From: Cytophagales bacterium
Lineage (GTDB): Bacteria > Bacteroidota > Bacteroidia > Cytophagales > Microscillaceae
Assembly: GCA_004293905.1 (NCBI GenBank)
Contig: RDZE01000015.1
Coordinates: 62,001 to 126,000 of the forward strand
Length of the DNA: 64,000 nt
Reading direction: 5' to 3'
In this document: positions 3,723-59,556 of the stretch, piece by piece
How positions within the stretch are numbered: position 1 is the first letter of the stretch
How the letters are laid out: the number at the start of each line of letters is the position of its first letter
Notes under the pieces: generated by a model
Databases searched by the model: none
Told to the model about the DNA's origin: nothing
Seen by the model: the letters and a program-made list of their open reading frames with translations, nothing else
Program-made: the position numbers and the translations under genes

Positions 3723-3781
3723 CTTTTAGTAAAAAATGCTAAATTTTGACATCTTCTTTAGTATCTATCTTTCTAACACAA

Positions 3782-4222
3782 ATGAAAAAAACATATACTA
3801 TCTTCTTACTCCTACTCTTATTAATGCTACACCTCAATACAATGGCGCAAAAAGCTAAAGCAATAACTATCAATGAAGTACTTACAACGGTGCAAGAAGC
3901 CTTTGCTACAGAATCGATGAGCAGTGTACAAAAATGGGCAGGTACGATATGTTGTTTTTTTATACAGAAGCAAATTTTAAAGCAAGGCTTTTTATCAATG
4001 AAAAAGGAGAAAAAATAAGGCGCATCTATGCCGCCGCAGAAGGAGGCAATTTCAATGAACTTTGCTCCCAACCAAACAATACAAGGACAAGAAATGGTCT
4101 ATCTGTTTGCTACAAAACTACAGTACATTCGCGTTATTCTGAAAAACGGAGAAAAGAGAACTTTTTTCCGATGCGACACGAACGGAAACCCTCTTGTTGA
4201 TACCAACGAAGAAGAAGACTAA
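3782..4222 (+). pseudogene. Frameshifted gene for a small secreted protein
   Basis: The gene begins at ATG 3782 with a clear signal peptide (MKKTYTIFLLLLLLMLHLNT, cleavage after AMAQ). The frame is kept to about 3940, to the residues SSVQKWAG. The next protein-like stretch (YDMLFFYTEANFKARLF, INEKGEKIRRIY) lies one frame back, up to about 4060. The C-terminus (APNQTIQGQEMVYLFATKLQ, then YIRVILKNGEKRTFF) returns to the first frame and ends at 4220-4222. This is what a one-base loss followed by a one-base gain would give. A near-consensus promoter (TTG 3746-3748, N17, TATCTTTC 3766-3773) is still in place. The intact product would be about 145 residues. The family is not recognised. Sequencing error is the main alternative to a true pseudogene. 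Confidence 0.6.
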
Positions 4223-4259: not shown

Positions 4260-6953
4260 ATGAAAATAGGCATCTTTTTTGGCGGTCAATCGCGCGAGCG
4301 CGAAGTTTCTTTTGCAGGCGGAAGAACCGTCTATGACAACTTAGACAAAAACCTCTTTGAGCCCATTCCCATTTTTGTAGATAGCTTGGGCAATTTTATT
4401 CTCTTAGAGTGGCAATACATTTACAAGGGTACTATCCGTGATTTTTATCCACCCGCCCGATTTTTGCCCACTACTACGCACAAAATACAGCTTTATATAG
4501 AATCCTTAGCACAGCTAAGCGCGGAGGAACTTCAAAAAATTATTAACGAAGTAGGCAAACCCATCACCCCGATAGATTTTAAAACCCTCTTTGATTTTGC
4601 TTTTTTGGCATTGCACGGGCAATATGGCGAAGATGGTAATATTCAAGGAATTTTAGAATGGTATGGTATCCCTTATTCTGGCTCAGGTATTTTGCCCTCT
4701 GCCATCGGGATTGATAAGATAGTGCAAAGCCAAATATTGCAGCAAGCAGGTTTTAAAAGACCTAAACAGCTCATTATCAGCCAAGAAGAGTGGCAAAAAT
4801 ATGAACAAGCCCCCACAGAATGGCAAAAATTATTGCAAAAAATAACTCAACAAATAGGCTTCCCCGTAGTAGTAAAATCGCCACAACAGGGTTCTTCTAT
4901 TGGGGTTACTATTGTGCATACTCCAGAAATAACTGACCTCAAAAAAGCCCTACAAAAAAGCTTTTTTCAACAAACTATAGAAAATTGGCATCAAAAAACA
5001 CCTACCGAAAAACAAACCTTTTTGCTTCAATTTACCGATATTCGTGAGGGGTTAGGCTTTCCTGTAATAGATAACAAAACTAAGGAAACACTCTATACGG
5101 CACAAGCATTGTATGATTATTTGGAAGCCAGCCCAAAAGCAGTAACCCTTAGCAGTATTCACACAGAGCCAAGAATACTCTTAGAAGAGCACATCAAGGG
5201 CAAAGAGTTTTCTTGCATCGTCATTCAAGCTGAAGACGGCACGCCCATAGCATTGCCCCCTACTGAAATCAGAAAGTACAATGAATTATTCGATTATAGG
5301 TCAAAATATCTGCCCGGTACGAGCCGAAAAATTACGCCCATAGAAATAGCATCTACTTTGATAGCCGAAATCAGAGAGGCTTGCGAAAAACTTTTTAGAG
5401 CCTTGCAATGCAATGTTTATGCGCGCATTGATGGTTTCATTACACCCGATAATCAAATTTACCTCAACGACCCCAACACTACATCGGGAATGATGCCTTC
5501 TTCTTTCTTTTTCCACCAAGCGGCGGAAATAGGGCTCAATTCCAAAGATTTTCTTACCTACATCATCAGAACATCACTTGCAGAACGCATCAAAACGGGT
5601 AAAAATACTTGGGTATTGCAAAAACAACTGCAAGAAATTGACGAAAAAATCAAAAATAATAGAATACAACAAACCCAAAAAATACCTGTAGCGGTGCTTA
5701 TGGGAGGCTACTCTACCGAAAGACATATCTCTATGGAAAGCGGCAGAAACATTTATGAAAAACTGTCTTCTTCTACCAAATATCTGCCTTTTCCTGTATT
5801 TGTAATGGGCAACGACCAAGCCCATGAACTGTACGAAATCCCTGTCAATTATATGCTCAAAGACAACGCAGATGACATTCGCGATAAGATAAAAGCAGAT
5901 GAAACAGGGCAAAAACAGCAAGGAAGCGAAATACTAAATCATATCATTGCGGAGTGCCAAAATATTACAGAAAAATACGTAGGGCACAGCCTCAAAAAAC
6001 CACAAAAAATAAGTTATGCACAATTAGCCGAGCGTACCAAATTGGTATTTATTGCCCTACACGGACGACCCGGCGAAGATGGCGCAGTACAAACAGAGTT
6101 AGAAAAATATGGCATTGCTTACAATGGCTCAGGCGCGGAAAGCTCGCAAAAAACAATTAACAAGTATGAAACCAACGAAATACTACGAAAAAATGGCATT
6201 TTAGTAGCTTCACACGCCCTCATCTACCAAACAGATTGGGAAAAAGATGCCGAAAAAGTAATACATTGGGTAAAAGAACAATTTCAGTTTCCTATCATTG
6301 CCAAACCCGCCGATGATGGTTGTAGTTCGGCAGTGAAAAAAATAAAGAATGAAGCCCAACTTCGTGCCTTCGCTGCAATGATGTTCCGTCCTGAACCCGA
6401 ATTTTTGGAAGATGCTGTACAAACCTTAGGCTTGAAAAGAAACGAAGAATTTCCTCAAAAAAACTACTTTCTCATAGAGGCACTCATAGAACGACAAAAT
6501 GCCGATTACTTCCTTGAAATTACAGGAGGAATGTTGAGCACTGAAAATGGTTTTGAGGTTTTCGCACCTTCAGAAGCCTTAGCTACAGGCGATGTGCTGA
6601 GTTTAGAAGAGAAATTTTTGGCAGGCGAAGGGCAAAATATCACACCCGCCCGCTATGCTACAGATAACCCTACGCTCAATGCACAAATAGAACAAGAAGC
6701 CCAAAAAGTACTACAACGCACCGCCGAACTACTTGGCGTAGAGGGTTATTGTCGTATTGATGCCTTTGTAAGAGTATACCGCGAGCCGCTTAAGATAGAA
6801 ATCATCATCATAGAAATTAACTCACTGCCGGGTATGACACCTGCTACTTGTATTTTTCATCAAGCAGCACTCAATCAATACAAACCTTATCAATTCATAG
6901 ATAAAATATTAGAATACGGACAAAAGAAAGCACATGTTCTCTCTACAAAATAA
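4260..6953 (+). CDS. ddl: Double-length D-alanine-D-alanine ligase (two Ddl units in tandem)
   Basis: Ddl joins two D-alanines with ATP to make the dipeptide used in peptidoglycan precursors. This protein (897 residues from ATG 4260, beginning MKIGIFFGG) contains the fold twice. Unit 1 (residues 1 to about 460) shows GGQSREREVS, LALHGQYGEDG, VVKSPQQGSSIGV, ARIDGF and LNDPNTTSGM. Unit 2 (from about residue 474) shows GGYSTERHIS, ALHGRPGEDG, AKPADDGCSS, CRIDAF and IEINSLPGM. A single Ddl is about 300-370 residues, so this is a head-to-tail fusion with larger domains. Unit 2 keeps the metal-binding E-x-N; in unit 1 the Glu is replaced by Asp (N-D-P-N). Unit 1 keeps EREVS while unit 2 has ERHIS. 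The units may differ in activity. An SDR gene overlaps the 3' end by 20 bp. Confidence 0.93.
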   Translation: MKIGIFFGGQSREREVSFAGGRTVYDNLDKNLFEPIPIFVDSLGNFILLEWQYIYKGTIRDFYPPARFLPTTTHKIQLYIESLAQLSAEELQKIINEVGKPITPIDFKTLFDFAFLALHGQYGEDGNIQGILEWYGIPYSGSGILPSAIGIDKIVQSQILQQAGFKRPKQLIISQEEWQKYEQAPTEWQKLLQKITQQIGFPVVVKSPQQGSSIGVTIVHTPEITDLKKALQKSFFQQTIENWHQKTPTEKQTFLLQFTDIREGLGFPVIDNKTKETLYTAQALYDYLEASPKAVTLSSIHTEPRILLEEHIKGKEFSCIVIQAEDGTPIALPPTEIRKYNELFDYRSKYLPGTSRKITPIEIASTLIAEIREACEKLFRALQCNVYARIDGFITPDNQIYLNDPNTTSGMMPSSFFFHQAAEIGLNSKDFLTYIIRTSLAERIKTGKNTWVLQKQLQEIDEKIKNNRIQQTQKIPVAVLMGGYSTERHISMESGRNIYEKLSSSTKYLPFPVFVMGNDQAHELYEIPVNYMLKDNADDIRDKIKADETGQKQQGSEILNHIIAECQNITEKYVGHSLKKPQKISYAQLAERTKLVFIALHGRPGEDGAVQTELEKYGIAYNGSGAESSQKTINKYETNEILRKNGILVASHALIYQTDWEKDAEKVIHWVKEQFQFPIIAKPADDGCSSAVKKIKNEAQLRAFAAMMFRPEPEFLEDAVQTLGLKRNEEFPQKNYFLIEALIERQNADYFLEITGGMLSTENGFEVFAPSEALATGDVLSLEEKFLAGEGQNITPARYATDNPTLNAQIEQEAQKVLQRTAELLGVEGYCRIDAFVRVYREPLKIEIIIIEINSLPGMTPATCIFHQAALNQYKPYQFIDKILEYGQKKAHVLSTK

Positions 6954-7725
6954 AGTAGCCTTAGTGGGCGGTAGCACGCAAGGCATTGGTTGGGCAGCCG
7001 CTCAACTTTTAGCAAAAGCAGGTTCTAAAGTAGTTTTATTGGCAAGAAATGAAGAAAAATTAAAACAATGCCTTGCCGAATTGCCACGTCCTTATGCACA
7101 AACTCATGCCTACATCGTAGCCGATTTTGCACAACCACAACAGGTAAAGGCGGCACTTAGCCAATACCAACAAGAAAATCCCGAAGAATCTATTCATATC
7201 CTTGTAAATAATACAGGCGGACCACCTGCTGGAAAAGCTATAGAAGCATCTTTGGACGCTTTCCGCGAAGCCTTTGAAGCCCATCTGATTGTCAATCAAA
7301 TACTTACACAGCAATTGGTGGAGGGAATGAAAAAGGAAAAATTTGGACGCATTATCAATGTAATTTCCACCTCTGTAAAACAACCCTTAGATAATTTAGG
7401 GGTTTCGAATACCATAAGGGCAGCCGTAGCAAGTTGGGCTAAAACCCTTTCAAAAGAATTAGCAACCTTTGGTATTACGGTCAATAATGTACTACCCGGT
7501 GCAACAGCCACACAACGATTGGATACCTTGATTACTAATAAATCTAAAAAACAACAAGTGCCTTACGAGGTAATAGAAGCCGAAATGAAAGCTGAAGTGC
7601 CTGCCCAGCGTTTTGCCACACCTGAAGAAATAGGGGCTGCAATTCTCTTTTTGGCAACTGAAGAAGCTGCCTATATCAATGGTATTAATTTGCCCGTAGA
7701 TGGCGGAAGGCTTAGTACTTTATAA
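6934..7725 (+). CDS. SDR-family protein lacking the catalytic Tyr/Lys (atypical FabG-like)
   Basis: A 263-residue Rossmann-fold protein of the short-chain dehydrogenase/reductase superfamily. The cofactor motif is GGSTQGIG near residue 13, the NNAG-like motif is NNTGGP, and the C-terminus ends in a typical INLPVDGG block. The active site is unusual. After INVIST, where S-x12-Y-x3-K is expected, the sequence reads NLGVSNTIRAAV, so Tyr is replaced by Ser and Lys by Arg. A known BKR-like SDR subgroup has such an imperfect tetrad, and its reaction is undefined. It begins 20 bp inside ddl, which implies translational coupling but not necessarily a shared pathway. Confidence 0.85.
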   Translation: MFSLQNKVALVGGSTQGIGWAAAQLLAKAGSKVVLLARNEEKLKQCLAELPRPYAQTHAYIVADFAQPQQVKAALSQYQQENPEESIHILVNNTGGPPAGKAIEASLDAFREAFEAHLIVNQILTQQLVEGMKKEKFGRIINVISTSVKQPLDNLGVSNTIRAAVASWAKTLSKELATFGITVNNVLPGATATQRLDTLITNKSKKQQVPYEVIEAEMKAEVPAQRFATPEEIGAAILFLATEEAAYINGINLPVDGGRLSTL

Positions 7726-18174: not shown

Positions 18175-21100
18175 CTACATATTCCTCCTGTACTGCCCGC
18201 CTACTTCGTAGAGTGCGTTGCTCATTTGTCCTAAAGAGCAATATTTGGCAGATTCCATAAGTGCTTCGAAAAGATTGCCGTTCTCGATGGAGGTTTTTTG
18301 TAAAAATCTAAGCATTTCGGAGGCTTTATCGGTGTTGCGTGCGTGGAAGGCATCGCGCATGGAGATTTGAAACTCTTTTTCCTCCGTAGTACTTCTGATG
18401 ACTTCGGCAGGAATGACTGTAGGCGAGCCTTTAGGGTCAAGGAAGGTATTTACACCCATAATAGGCAACTCGCCCGTGTGTTTTTTCATTTCGTAGTGCA
18501 TGCTTTCTTCCTGAATTTTAGAGCGTTGGTACATGCGCTCCATTGCACCTAACACACCACCACGTTCAGAAATAGAACGAAATTCATGATAAACTGCATT
18601 TTCTACTAAGTCTGTTAGTTCTTCTATAATGAAAGCACCTTGCAAAGGATTTTCGTTTTTTGCCAATCCCAATTCGTGGTTGATAATCAACTGAATAGCC
18701 ATAGCGCGGCGCACACTTTCCTCTGTAGGCGTGGTGATTGCCTCGTCATAGGCGTTGGTATGCAAGGAGTTACAGTTGTCATAAATGGCATAAAGGGCTT
18801 GCAAAGTAGTACGAATATCATTGAATGCAATTTCTTGAGCGTGCAAACTACGCCCCGATGTTTGGATATGGTATTTCAGTTTTTGGCTTCGGTCATTGCC
18901 TTTGTATTTATATTTCATGGCTTTTGCCCAGATGCGCCTTGCCACCCTACCCAATACGGAATATTCGGGATCCATACCATTCGAGAAGAAGAAAGACAAA
19001 TTGGGTGCAAAATCGTCAATGTGCATTCCTCTGCTGAGGTAGTATTCCACAAAAGTAAATCCATTGGAAAGTGTGAGTGCCAATTGCGTGATTGGGTTTG
19101 CTCCTGCTTCGGCTATGTGATAACCTGAAATGGAAACAGAATAAAAATTCCTTACTTTTTTATCAATAAAATATTGTTGAATATCGCCCATCATTCTAAG
19201 CGCAAATTCAGTAGAGAAAATACAAGTGTTTTGGGCTTGGTCTTCTTTCAAAATATCTGCCTGCACTGTGCCGCGTACTTGCGATAGGGCATAGGCTTTT
19301 ATTTTTTGATAAATCTCTTGAGGCAATACTTGGTCGCCCGTTACGCCTAAAAGCATCAGCCCTAAACCATCATTTCCTTCGGGCAGTGCTGCTGCATTGT
19401 AAGTAGGAATAGGCAATCCTTTTTCTTCATAAATGGCTTCTATTTTTGCTTTTACTTCGTTTTCCAATCCATTTTCTTTGATGTACAATTCACATTGCTG
19501 GTCAATGGCAGTATTCATGAAAAACGCCAAAAGCATTGGGGCAGGACCGTTGATAGTCATTGATACTGAAGTGCTTGGGTTGCAAAGGTTGAAACCCGAA
19601 TAGAGTTTTTTGGCATCGTCTAAGGTGGCAACGCTTACCCCTGAGTTGCCTATTTTGCCATAAATATCGGGTCTGTGGTCGGGGTTTTCGCCATATAAAG
19701 TTACAGAATCAAAGGCAGTCGAGAGGCGTTTGGCGGGCAAACCTTTGGAAACGTAGTGAAAACGCTTGTTCGTTCTTTCGGGTCCGCCTTCGCCTGCAAA
19801 CATACGTGTAGGGTCTTCGCCTTCGCGTTTTAGAGGGAATACACCTGCGGCATAGGGGAAAAATCCGGGTGCATTTTCTGTGAGAAGCCAATGGAGAATA
19901 TCGCCCCAATCTTCGTATTTGGGTAAGGCTACTTTGGGTACTTTGGTGCCTGAAAGTGAGGTATAATAAAGGTCTTGTTCTATGATTTTATCGCGTACTT
20001 GGAACTGGTATTTATCGGCTTTATAGCGTTTTTTGGTAGCTGCCCAATCCATCAACATGGCTTTACACTCGCCTTCTAATTGATTGTCTAAGTCGTTGTA
20101 TTGTGCAATCAAATCTTTCAAATATTCGGGTTCGCCTTGCTCGTAAGCAACTACCGAAACCACGTTGTCAGATTGCTCCACGATTTGTATTTTTTGCTTG
20201 CCTATGTTGGCTCTTAGTAAATCTATAGTTCCTTTGAGTTGGTACATTTTGCGAGCTATGTCGCTCTGTTCTTTGATAAATTTGTGGTAATCTTCCGCAT
20301 TTTCGCAAATTTCAGCCAAATAGCGGACTCTATCGGGCGGAATGATGTAAATTTTTTCCGACATTTTTTCCGATATTTCGAAACTCGATTGGAGTGCAAG
20401 AATGCCTGTTTTTTCTACTAATTTATCTATAATTTTTCGGTAGAGCGTATTCGTGCCTACATCGTTGAATTGCGAAGCTATAGTACCATAAATAGGCAAA
20501 TCTTCATCGGGTGTATCCCAAAGGTTATGATTGCGTTTGTATTGTTTTTTTACATCACGCATTGCATCTAAAGAGCCTCGTTTGTCAAATTTATTGATGG
20601 CAATAATATCGGCAAAGTCGAGCATATCTATTTTTTCTAATTGTGTTGCCGCGCCATATTCAGAGGTCATCACATACAAACTTGCATCGGAGTGTTCTAT
20701 AATTTCAGTATCGGACTGTCCAATGCCTGAGGTTTCTACAACGATGAGGTCGAAGCCCGCAAATTTGCAAATATCAATAGCATCTTGCACATAGCGGCTA
20801 AGGGCTAAATTGCTTTGTCGAGTAGCCAAACTACGCATATACACCCTTCCGTTGGAGATGCTATTCATGCGGATTCTATCGCCTAAAAGTGCGCCGCCTG
20901 TTTTGCGTTTAGAGGGGTCTACGGAAATAACTGCAATATTTTTGTCTTCAAAATCCATCAAAAATCTGCGTACCAACTCATCAACCAAGCTCGATTTGCC
21001 TGCGCCCCCTGTGCCTGTGATGCCTAAGACAGGTATTTTGACATTTTTAGTCAGGGCAAGATTGATTTTTTCTTTTGCTTTCTCAAATTCTTCGGGGTAA

Positions 21101-21678
21101 TTTTCGGCTACGGAAATCAGTCGGGCTATGCTTTGGTGGTGTTTTTCTTTGCTTCTTTCCAAAAAATATTCTATGGCTGGTATTTCCTCTAACTCGCCGT
21201 GGCTGGTTTCCATTTTTTGTACTTTTTTAGGGTCAAAAGTGGAGAAGTCGCATTTCATTAATACGTCATTGATCATACCTTGCAAGCCCATGGCTCTGCC
21301 GTCATCGGGGTGATAAATGCGCGTGATGCCGTAGGCGTGTAGTTCTTCTATTTCAGAAGGGAGTATGGTGCCGCCGCCGCCGCCAAATATTTTGATGTTG
21401 GCGTTGCGTTCTTTGAGTAAATCGTGCATGTATTTAAGGTACTCTACGTGCCCACCTTGGTAAGAAGTAATGGCAATGGCTTGCGCATCTTCTTGAATGG
21501 CACAATCTACGATTTCGGCAACAGAACGGTTGTGCCCTAAGTGGATAATTTCCGCCCCTGATGACTGCATTACGCGGCGCATGATGTTGATGGCGGCATC
21601 GTGCCCATCGAAAAGAGAGGCAGCCGTAACAATGCGAATATGATTTTGAGGTTGGTATATAGGAGGAGTGGCTGTCAT
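18175..21678 (-). CDS. icmF: Fused isobutyryl-CoA mutase (IcmF)
   Basis: IcmF interconverts isobutyryl-CoA and n-butyryl-CoA using adenosylcobalamin, and carries its own G-protein chaperone. The domain order is B12-binding (residues 1 to about 140, DGHD with lower-ligand His26), a MeaI-type GTPase (Walker [13 protein letters not shown] at 219-230), a linker, and the mutase barrel (about 600-1167). In the barrel AGVFPLKR has Phe where methylmalonyl-CoA mutase has Tyr, and QNTCIF has Gln where it has Arg. Both changes are diagnostic of isobutyryl-CoA rather than methylmalonyl-CoA. I use ATG 21678 (1167 residues); an upstream TTG/ATG at 21759 would overlap hslV and adds a non-homologous leader. 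It lies 35 bp after hslV, perhaps co-transcribed. Confidence 0.95.
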
Positions 21679-21713
21679 AGTATTTTTAGAATTTTTTGTT
21701 GTGATATATAAAT

Positions 21714-22259
21714 TTATTGAATCGTTTCGATGACTAAATTGTGGTTGGTATAAATGCAAATATCAGCGGCTATGTGTAGGCTTTCTCTTACCATTTCTTC
21801 GGCGGTGAGTTGTGGAGCGTGTTTTTTGAGTGCTGTAGCAGCGGCTTGCGCATACATACTTCCAGAACCAATGGCAGCGATTTGGTTGTCGGGCTCGATG
21901 ACATCGCCCGTACCCGAAATGATGAGTACTTCTTCGCGGTTTACGGTAATGAGCATCGCCTCTAAACGTCTTAGATAGCGGTCGGTACGCCAATCTTTGG
22001 CAAGTTCTATGGCTGCACGTTTCATGTTGCCTCCGTAGCTGTTGAGTTTTTCGTCAAATCTTTCAAGCAATGTGAAAGCATCAGCGGTAGAGCCTGCAAA
22101 CCCTGTGATAATTTTTCCGTCTTGCAATTTGCGTATCTTCTTTACATTGCTCTTGGCTACGGTGTTACCCATAGTGGCTTGTCCATCTGCGCCGATGGCT
22201 ACGGTGCCGTTGTGTGCAATGGCTAATACGGTGGTAGCGTGAATTTTGCTTTCTTTCAT
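21714..22259 (-). CDS. hslV: ATP-dependent protease subunit HslV
   Basis: HslV is the proteasome-like threonine peptidase that forms a double hexamer and degrades proteins unfolded by the HslU ATPase. The nucleophile is the first Thr of HATTVLAI (Thr9), exposed after removal of a short propeptide, as expected for Bacteroidota. [20 protein letters not shown] and [11 protein letters not shown] are conserved. I use the ATG at 22259 (181 residues), ten codons into the longest frame, because the extension is not family-like. hslU is not adjacent, so the two subunits must be encoded apart. Confidence 0.95.
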
Positions 22260-58644: not shown

Positions 58645-59556
58645 TTATTTGAGATAAAACACCATTTCACCACCCTCATTACCCACATTTCGCAGCGGGT
58701 TTCCTATAGGCGTTTGGCTGGTATTATCCGATACCGCAATTTTTACATATTGTATCAGTTCCGAAACAGGGAAACGGTCTTTTAGATTTTCTTTCAAAAA
58801 CTTAACTAAATAATGGGCAAAAGGGCTATTTTCACCCTGCTTACCATCAGAAACAAACTCAATATTACCTGAAGTAAGCCCCCAACGTGATTTGATTTGC
58901 TCTACTTTCTCTATATAACCTCTATTTTGCTCTGAAAACAAAGAACCTGAAAAACACGCATCAGCAATCAAAAAAGTGTGGCGCGAATTGATAGCCGCAA
59001 TGTATTTAAGCACATTCGTATTAGGAATATAAGTAGAAACCTGCCCTACTTTGCCATTGTAAGGAATCCAATACCCCTCATCGAAAGAGGCATCATAAAA
59101 GCCATGCCCAGAGAAATAAATCAGTAGATTATCATTGCCTGCTATTTTTTCCTTTATTTTCTCAAAAGTAGCCCTTACATTTTCAAGCGTAACCTGCTCA
59201 TTATAAAGCTCATAAACATTGGCAAGGTCGAAACGGTATTTTTCTAACAATACTTTTTTTACATCATTAGCATCTTTAACAGCATTGTGCAGTGGCTTCC
59301 AAAAAGTATATTTATCTACGGCAATGATGAGCAAATAATTACTCGCATCTGCCGAAACATCAAAGTCAAGGTCTAAGTCTTCATCTTTTTTTAGGTAAGA
59401 TAGGTCAAAATTCATCACTTTGCTATCAGCCGCGTGCATATTGACTGTTTTTTTCTTTTTATGTCCATTGTGTGTTTGCGCTTGCAACCCTAAAGGCAAT
59501 AAGAAAAGGCTTAACAATAGTATTTTCAAGAAGTTAGTTTTCATATATTTCATCAC
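58645..59556 (-). CDS. Exported caspase-like (C14) protease
   Basis: A 303-residue protein with a signal peptide (hydrophobic 10-24, cleavage near LQAQ). The catalytic domain (about 70-300) is a C14 caspase fold: NYLLIIAVDKY, the His of IYFSGHGFY (His151), and the Cys of LIADACFSGS (Cys201). The segment NSPFAHYLVKFLKE and the substrate-pocket region are typical of bacterial orthocaspases. It should act outside the cytoplasm. Substrate and regulation are unknown. ATG 59553 or 59544 are possible starts. Confidence 0.9.
   Translation of the reverse strand: MMKYMKTNFLKILLLSLFLLPLGLQAQTHNGHKKKKTVNMHAADSKVMNFDLSYLKKDEDLDLDFDVSADASNYLLIIAVDKYTFWKPLHNAVKDANDVKKVLLEKYRFDLANVYELYNEQVTLENVRATFEKIKEKIAGNDNLLIYFSGHGFYDASFDEGYWIPYNGKVGQVSTYIPNTNVLKYIAAINSRHTFLIADACFSGSLFSEQNRGYIEKVEQIKSRWGLTSGNIEFVSDGKQGENSPFAHYLVKFLKENLKDRFPVSELIQYVKIAVSDNTSQTPIGNPLRNVGNEGGEMVFYLK

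What the first reader, a model, noticed from the sequence alone, without database searches (positions are those of the whole stretch)
4260..6953. D-Ala-D-Ala ligase built from two complete, divergent Ddl units
The single open frame reads through two ATP-grasp Ddl modules with no stop between them. Unit 1 has canonical EREVS but D-P-N where the metal-binding E-x-N is expected. Unit 2 has ERHIS but a canonical E-I-N. Each unit may have kept some functions and lost others, which could give substrate channelling, an internal regulator, or a ligase with altered product (for example D-Ala-D-Lac or D-Ala-D-Ser). The presence of both units is seen directly; altered roles are inference.
Basis: partly seen in the sequence, partly recalled or inferred. 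Interest (0 to 1): 0.6.

Follow-up and report, generated by a model that had tools for sequence, protein, structure and literature searches.

The report
Two-in-one bacterial cell-wall ligase (tandem Ddl)
This bacterium and many of its relatives make an essential cell-wall building block (D-alanyl-D-alanine) with one double-length enzyme in which two different, both strictly conserved, ligase copies are joined; the second copy has a remodelled substrate pocket, which raises the testable question of what it really joins.

Summary
One 897-aa frame (4260-6953, +) holds two complete Ddl units (about 1-455 and 471-890; about 25% identical to each other). It is the only Ddl in this Cytophagales genome. 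It is no artefact: 103 of 242 sampled genomes of the order carry it in one frame at 47-70% identity, and 69 of 199 genomes of a second order carry its second unit, usually in a similar-length or longer frame.

Unit 1's D-P-N is invariant (80/80) and is kept in lineages where unit 1 is the only Ddl. Unit 2 keeps every ATP/Mg residue, but its acceptor-side residues are changed invariantly: Ser150 to Cys, Tyr216 to Phe, Ser281 to Thr (80/80; 52/52 canonical Ddls keep Ser/Tyr/Ser). Tyr216 to Phe is the known dipeptide/depsipeptide switch.

Natural experiments fit: three families lost unit 2's ligase half, and among 14 tandem carriers of the second order exactly the three with a separate canonical Ddl have degenerate tandems.

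Best reading: an obligatory D-Ala-D-Ala ligase. Unit 1 is the ordinary ligase; unit 2 is a second competent-looking site with altered acceptor handling. Its product is untested. New variant of a known enzyme.

The parts
4260..6953 (+). tandem D-alanine--D-alanine ligase gene, 897 aa, stop TAA at 6951-6953
   Evidence: orthologues in one frame in 103 of 242 genomes of the order
4260..5624 (+). unit 1 (residues 1-455): complete Ddl, with an insertion of about 60 aa in the ATP-grasp part
   Evidence: PF01820 + PF07478; 217.6-226.4 bits against Ddl models; PDB Ddl hits
4893..4895 (+). unit 1 Ser212 = DdlB Ser150 (canonical)
   Evidence: 80/80 Ser
5307..5309 (+). unit 1 Tyr350 = DdlB Tyr216 (canonical)
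   Evidence: 80/80 Tyr
5469..5471 (+). unit 1 Asp404 = DdlB Glu270 (metal ligand, Glu to Asp)
   Evidence: 80/80 Asp; also Asp in 7/7 truncated sole Ddls; 52/52 canonical Ddls have Glu
5625..5669 (+). end of the inter-unit helix and linker
   Evidence: model: helix 450-473 joins the units
5670..6929 (+). unit 2 (residues 471-890): complete Ddl with altered acceptor-side residues
   Evidence: PF01820 + PF07478; 159.4 bits against TIGR01205; PDB Ddl hits
6321..6323 (+). unit 2 Cys688 = DdlB Ser150
   Evidence: 80/80 Cys; Ser in only two reduced genomes
6615..6617 (+). unit 2 Phe786 = DdlB Tyr216
   Evidence: 80/80 Phe; also Phe in all split unit-2 genes
6813..6815 (+). unit 2 Glu852 = DdlB Glu270 (canonical)
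   Evidence: 80/80 Glu
6846..6851 (+). unit 2 Thr863-Cys864 = DdlB Ser281-Leu282
   Evidence: Thr 80/80; Cys 69 and Ala 11 of 80

Best explanation
The gene is the organism's only D-Ala:D-Ala ligase, built as an intramolecular pair. SHOWN: two complete ATP-grasp ligase units under equal, strong purifying selection; no other Ddl in this genome; a conserved position in the ancestral ddl locus of the class; mutually exclusive occurrence with canonical Ddl. INFERRED: unit 1, which has the canonical Glu-Ser-Tyr triad and Asp in place of the metal-binding Glu, activates D-Ala with ATP to an acyl phosphate and joins a second D-Ala, supplying MurF. Unit 2 binds ATP/Mg and a first D-Ala in the same way, but its omega loop and acceptor pocket (Cys150, Phe216, Thr281, Cys282 in DdlB numbering) handle the second substrate differently: a relaxed or different acceptor, or D-Ala-D-Ala with different kinetics. 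The two units probably pack like the two subunits of an ordinary Ddl homodimer. Probabilities: sole Ddl 0.95; unit 1 makes D-Ala-D-Ala 0.85; unit 2 catalytically competent 0.7; unit 2 with a different preferred acceptor 0.4.
For: Sole Ddl: only two PF01820 hits in the genome, both in this frame; the other PF07478 hits in this genome lack PF01820, and the one read (L004) is a generic ATP-grasp protein. Exclusivity: none of 108 genomes of the sample at least 95% complete (own genome 90%) has more than two PF01820 hits. Counter-test: of 14 second-order genomes carrying the tandem, a Ddl over the TIGR01205 cut-off occurs only in G707, G692 and G674, exactly those whose tandem lost omega loops, catalytic His, metal ligands or unit 2. 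Unit 1 sufficient: three families keep unit 1 plus only a worn remnant of unit 2's N-domain, and this is their only PF01820 protein. Unit 2 competent: Glu15, His63, Lys97, Lys144, Glu180, Glu187, Lys215, Arg255, Asp257, Glu270 and Asn272 are 80/80; dN/dS 0.02-0.05; family f21 keeps both units as separate genes in genomes of about 1 Mb, and the 0.7-Mb G094 keeps only a unit-2-type gene besides MurF- and Alr-like genes. Remodelled acceptor side: Cys150, Phe216, Thr281 80/80 against Ser, Tyr, Ser in 52/52 canonical Ddls. Synteny: a PASTA gene follows the tandem in about 52 of 80 loci, lies next to canonical ddl in class relatives, and is fused to the tandem in 8 of the 15 second-order proteins read. 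Model mean pLDDT 86, pTM 0.86.
Against: No biochemistry exists. DdlB Tyr216-to-Phe keeps D-Ala-D-Ala activity (own knowledge), so unit 2 may make the same product. Three families dispense with unit 2's ligase half. Each half alone falls below the curated Ddl cut-offs; only the two together pass.
Confidence: 0.62

Rival explanations
1. Unit 2 is not a ligase in the cell but a structural or regulatory partner (a pseudo-subunit or a D-Ala/ATP sensor) for unit 1.
For: Truncated forms keep a worn N-domain of unit 2 but no second ATP-grasp. In G692 and G674 both units are degenerate yet the protein, fused to PASTA, is retained, so the fold can have a non-catalytic use.
Against: All ATP and metal residues of unit 2 are 80/80. 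Where catalysis is relaxed they and the omega loop are lost. Split unit-2 genes keep them.
Confidence: 0.22
2. Both units make D-Ala-D-Ala; the difference is only kinetic (dosage, cooperativity, drug tolerance), and Phe216 is near-neutral.
For: DdlB Y216F still makes D-Ala-D-Ala (own knowledge). G094 has only a unit-2-type Ddl together with MurF- and Alr-like genes.
Against: Several acceptor-side residues changed together and were then frozen, which is hard to explain by drift. In G094 and G165 residue 150 is Ser, so the unit-2-only case is not the normal unit 2.
Confidence: 0.27
3. Unit 2 is a D-Ala-D-Lac (depsipeptide) or similar ligase, so these Gram-negatives make mixed peptidoglycan termini.
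For: Phe at this position separates depsipeptide from dipeptide Ddls in lactic acid bacteria (PMC5996685). The residue is invariant in unit 2.
Against: Unit 2 also differs from canonical Ddls at 150 and 281, so the analogy is incomplete. VanX-type peptidases are less, not more, common with intact unit 2 (22 of 62 against 25 of 25 truncated), though genome size and kinship confound this. The D-Ala-D-Lac model score is far below cut-off (190 against 550).
Confidence: 0.18
4. Assembly or frameshift artefact joining two ddl genes.
For: None found.
Against: The same architecture in 103 of 242 genomes, including single-contig ones, and in 80 named loci.
Confidence: 0.005

Closest known systems
D-alanine--D-alanine ligase Ddl (TIGR01205; E. 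coli DdlA/DdlB, PDB 2dln)
   Same: Fold, PF01820 + PF07478 domains, all ATP/Mg residues in unit 2 and all but one conservative change in unit 1, genomic niche
   Different: Two units in one chain; Glu270 to Asp in unit 1; Ser150 to Cys, Tyr216 to Phe, Ser281 to Thr in unit 2; each half scores below the curated cut-off alone
Phe-type depsipeptide Ddl of lactic acid bacteria (Leuconostoc LmDdl2, PDB 1ehi)
   Same: Phe at the Tyr216 position, as in unit 2
   Different: Single unit; low sequence similarity to unit 2 (E=0.0002); unit 2's Cys150 and Thr281 are additional changes
MurC-Ddl fusion (NF011171)
   Same: Ddl joined to another domain in one chain
   Different: Partner is MurC, not a second Ddl; score 170.7 against cut-off 1015
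MurF-Alr fusion (NF008897)
   Same: A fused enzyme of the same D-Ala branch, present in this genome over its cut-off
   Different: Different enzymes; a known Bacteroidota fusion

Membership tests
D-Ala:D-Ala ligase (Ddl) | N-domain PF01820 and C-domain PF07478 | tested here: met
   Both in each unit, over cut-off for the protein
D-Ala:D-Ala ligase (Ddl) | Whole-protein score over the TIGR01205 cut-off (245.65) | tested here: inconclusive
   370.8 for the whole chain, but 217.6 and 159.4 for the halves
D-Ala:D-Ala ligase (Ddl) | Catalytic and ATP/Mg residues Glu15, His63, Lys97, Lys144, Glu180, Glu187, Lys215, Arg255, Asp257, Glu270, Asn272 | tested here: met
   Unit 2 all 80/80; unit 1 all 80/80 except Asp for Glu270
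D-Ala:D-Ala ligase (Ddl) | Glu15-Ser150-Tyr216 triad | tested here: met
   Met in unit 1; not met in unit 2 (Glu-Cys-Phe, 80/80)
D-Ala:D-Ala ligase (Ddl) | Makes D-Ala-D-Ala | not testable with these tools
   Supported only indirectly: sole Ddl and exclusivity with canonical Ddl
D-Ala:D-Lac ligase | Phe (LAB type) at the Tyr216 position | tested here: met
   Unit 2 only; rule from PMC5996685
D-Ala:D-Lac ligase | Score over the NF000206 cut-off (550) | tested here: not met
   190.2; so not filed as a member
D-Ala:D-Lac ligase (VanA-type pathway) | Accompanying VanX-type dipeptidase | tested here: not met
   None found in this genome; negative association in the order

The most novel reading that the evidence does not exclude
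Unit 2 is a natural ligase with another acceptor (D-lactate, D-serine or another D-residue), so that two orders of Gram-negative Bacteroidota make, from one double enzyme, two kinds of peptidoglycan terminus or a second D-Ala-containing product.
Probability: 0.27. Interest if true: 0.82.

Novelty: new variant of a known kind. Interest (0 to 1): 0.6.

Why it matters
Ddl is an essential cell-wall enzyme and drug target, usually treated as a single-domain homodimer. Here a whole bacterial group depends on a heterogeneous tandem in which one pocket is canonical and the other carries the residue that elsewhere switches dipeptide to depsipeptide synthesis. Nature has also run the control experiments (loss of one unit, fission, decay after gain of a canonical Ddl, fusion to a PASTA membrane protein), so the role of each unit can be tested directly in harmless bacteria and in vitro. 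Public records call such proteins simply 'D-alanine--D-alanine ligase' (e.g. the truncated Bernardetia form); I found no paper describing the tandem, though subscription journals are mostly not held.

Tried and rejected
(1) Artefact: rejected by the conservation. (2) Unit 1 dead because of D-P-N: rejected. (3) Fusion of a native and a foreign Ddl: trees put unit 1 and unit 2 as separate clades (100/100), with canonical Ddls on one side of a branch (98/94; 93). This fits one ancient internal duplication, but the branches are long and the root is not tested. (4) Van-type resistance pathway: the VanX-like family is negatively associated; weak evidence, because kinship is not corrected for. (5) Link to MurF: a second MurF-like hit appears in most of these genomes, so it was not pursued. 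(6) Literature on vancomycin susceptibility of Hymenobacter: nothing usable; on the Ddl triad: nothing held. (8) Foldseek against PDB returned ordinary Ddl chains, so it adds the fold but not the pairing of units.

Full report
WHAT IS THERE. The frame at 4260-6953 (+) encodes 897 aa and carries two complete Ddl units. Unit 1 is residues 1-455, unit 2 about 471-890; a predicted helix (450-473) joins them. The two units are about 25% identical. The whole chain scores 370.8 bits against TIGR01205 (cut-off 245.65), the halves alone 217.6 and 159.4. Both find solved Ddl structures by sequence, and the predicted structure (mean pLDDT 86.1, pTM 0.86) matches Ddl chains. The next gene, an SDR-family reductase at 6934-7725, overlaps its end by 20 bases.

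IT IS THE ONLY Ddl. PF01820, specific to Ddl, hits this genome (90% complete) exactly twice, both here. Other PF07478 hits in this genome have no PF01820 hit; the one I read (L004) is a generic ATP-grasp protein. Alanine racemase and MurF are fused in one protein on the same contig, a known Bacteroidota fusion.

HOW WIDESPREAD. Relatives are Cytophagales: Microscillaceae, Rhodocytophaga, Rufibacter, Pontibacter, Hymenobacter, Adhaeribacter, Marivirga, Marinoscillum, Flammeovirga, Sporocytophaga and others. In one search, 103 of 242 genomes of the order have a match over essentially the whole length in one frame (my count from the table; a few of these show internal stop codons). In a sample of 108 (all but the window's own at least 95% complete) I class 62 as tandem, 25 as truncated, 12 as canonical single Ddl, 7 as the small-genome family f21 and 2 as unclear; none has more than two PF01820 hits. 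A unit-2 profile finds 69 of 199 genomes in a second order of the class. So the tandem is old. The second order is not named by the tool.

UNIT SIGNATURES. In 80 named loci, unit 1 has Glu15, His63, Lys97, Lys144, Ser150, Ser151, Glu180, Glu187, Lys215, Tyr216, Arg255, Asp257, Asn272 and Ser281 in 80/80 and Asp for Glu270 in 80/80 (DdlB numbering). Unit 2 has all ATP/Mg residues in 80/80 including Glu270, but Cys150, Phe216 and Thr281 in 80/80, and Cys or Ala at 282. A second, overlapping set of order genomes gives the same. In 52 canonical Ddls of the phylum, Ser150, Tyr216, Glu270 and Ser281 are all invariant. Invariant positions are equally many in both units (87 and 87). Where the YN00 estimate worked, dN/dS is 0.025-0.087 in unit 1 and 0.018-0.052 in unit 2.

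NATURAL EXPERIMENTS. (a) Families f2, f4 and f11 have a 560-656 aa form: unit 1 followed by a worn but recognisable N-domain of unit 2 and no second ATP-grasp. It is their only PF01820 protein, its unit 1 keeps Asp270 (7/7), and these forms are one clade (100/100), so one loss explains them. A Bernardetia plasmid copy is annotated simply as a Ddl. This argues that unit 1 suffices and that Asp270 works. (b) In f21 (0.7-1.9 Mb) the units are often separate genes far apart, both kept; the split unit-2 gene still lies next to the PASTA gene. (c) G094 (0.7 Mb, 96% complete) has only a unit-2-type gene, with Ser150 but Phe216, and still has MurF-like and racemase-like genes. A missing piece of assembly could hide unit 1. 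(d) Of 14 second-order tandem carriers tested, three also have a Ddl over the curated cut-off, G707, G692 and G674. These are the three whose tandem is decayed: omega loops deleted and catalytic His and other residues lost in both units of G692 and G674, and unit 2 decayed in G707. The other 11 have no such Ddl. This is the strongest evidence that the intact tandem is the working Ddl.

GENE CONTEXT. A membrane PASTA-domain gene (PF03793) directly follows the tandem in about 52 of 80 loci, adjoins canonical ddl in 9 of 15 class relatives tested and in f19, and is fused to the tandem in 8 of the 15 second-order tandem proteins read. So the tandem sits in the ancestral ddl locus and is functionally tied to a PASTA protein. 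In the window itself that neighbour is absent.

MECHANISM. Unit 1 most likely works as an ordinary Ddl. Unit 2 keeps what is needed to make the acyl phosphate but differs at the omega loop and acceptor side. In lactic acid bacteria the Phe/Tyr choice at this position decides depsipeptide or dipeptide synthesis (PMC5996685); DdlB Y216F gaining D-Ala-D-Lac activity is from my own knowledge of Walsh's work, and PDB 1iow is that mutant. Whether unit 2 here uses D-lactate, another acceptor or D-Ala is not decided. VanX-like peptidases are rarer with intact unit 2 (22 of 62) than in truncated lineages (25 of 25), which speaks against a VanA-like pathway but is confounded by kinship. Pairing of units as a pseudo-dimer is inference: Ddls are homodimers and the truncated forms keep the N-domain.

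NOVELTY. The enzyme kind is known; a conserved self-tandem with frozen, different pockets is, as far as the library searched shows, not described. I file it as a new variant of Ddl, not as a member of the D-Ala-D-Lac ligases.

Noticed in passing
L225 (742-4341), L254, L255, L256, L257, L258, L259, L260: In the second order the tandem Ddl is fused to the transmembrane PASTA protein (frames of 1200-1344 aa); in L254 and L255 both ligase units are degenerate, giving an apparent PASTA-linked pseudo-ligase that is still kept.
   Followed up: partly
L226 (952-2232, -) and L236: Two reduced f21 genomes have unit-2-type Ddl genes in which Cys150 is Ser again while Phe216 stays; in G094 it is the only Ddl.
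   Followed up: partly
G000:C15:135624-138107 (about 9.6 kb beyond the window end): MurF-Alr fusion protein over its curated cut-off, plus a second MurF-like gene on C12.
   Followed up: no
window 3746-4222: Small exported-protein-like frame just upstream of the ligase that seems to continue in another frame; possible frameshift or decayed gene.
   Followed up: no
L234 and L235 (G153, G082): Tandem ddl copies broken into several frames in draft genomes; sequencing error or decay not decided.
   Followed up: no
window 18175-21759 (-): 1194-aa frame that looks like a fused acyl-CoA mutase (IcmF type), followed closely by an hslV-like gene; by eye only.
   Followed up: no
window 58645-59556 (-): Caspase-like (C14 type) secreted peptidase by eye.
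   Followed up: no
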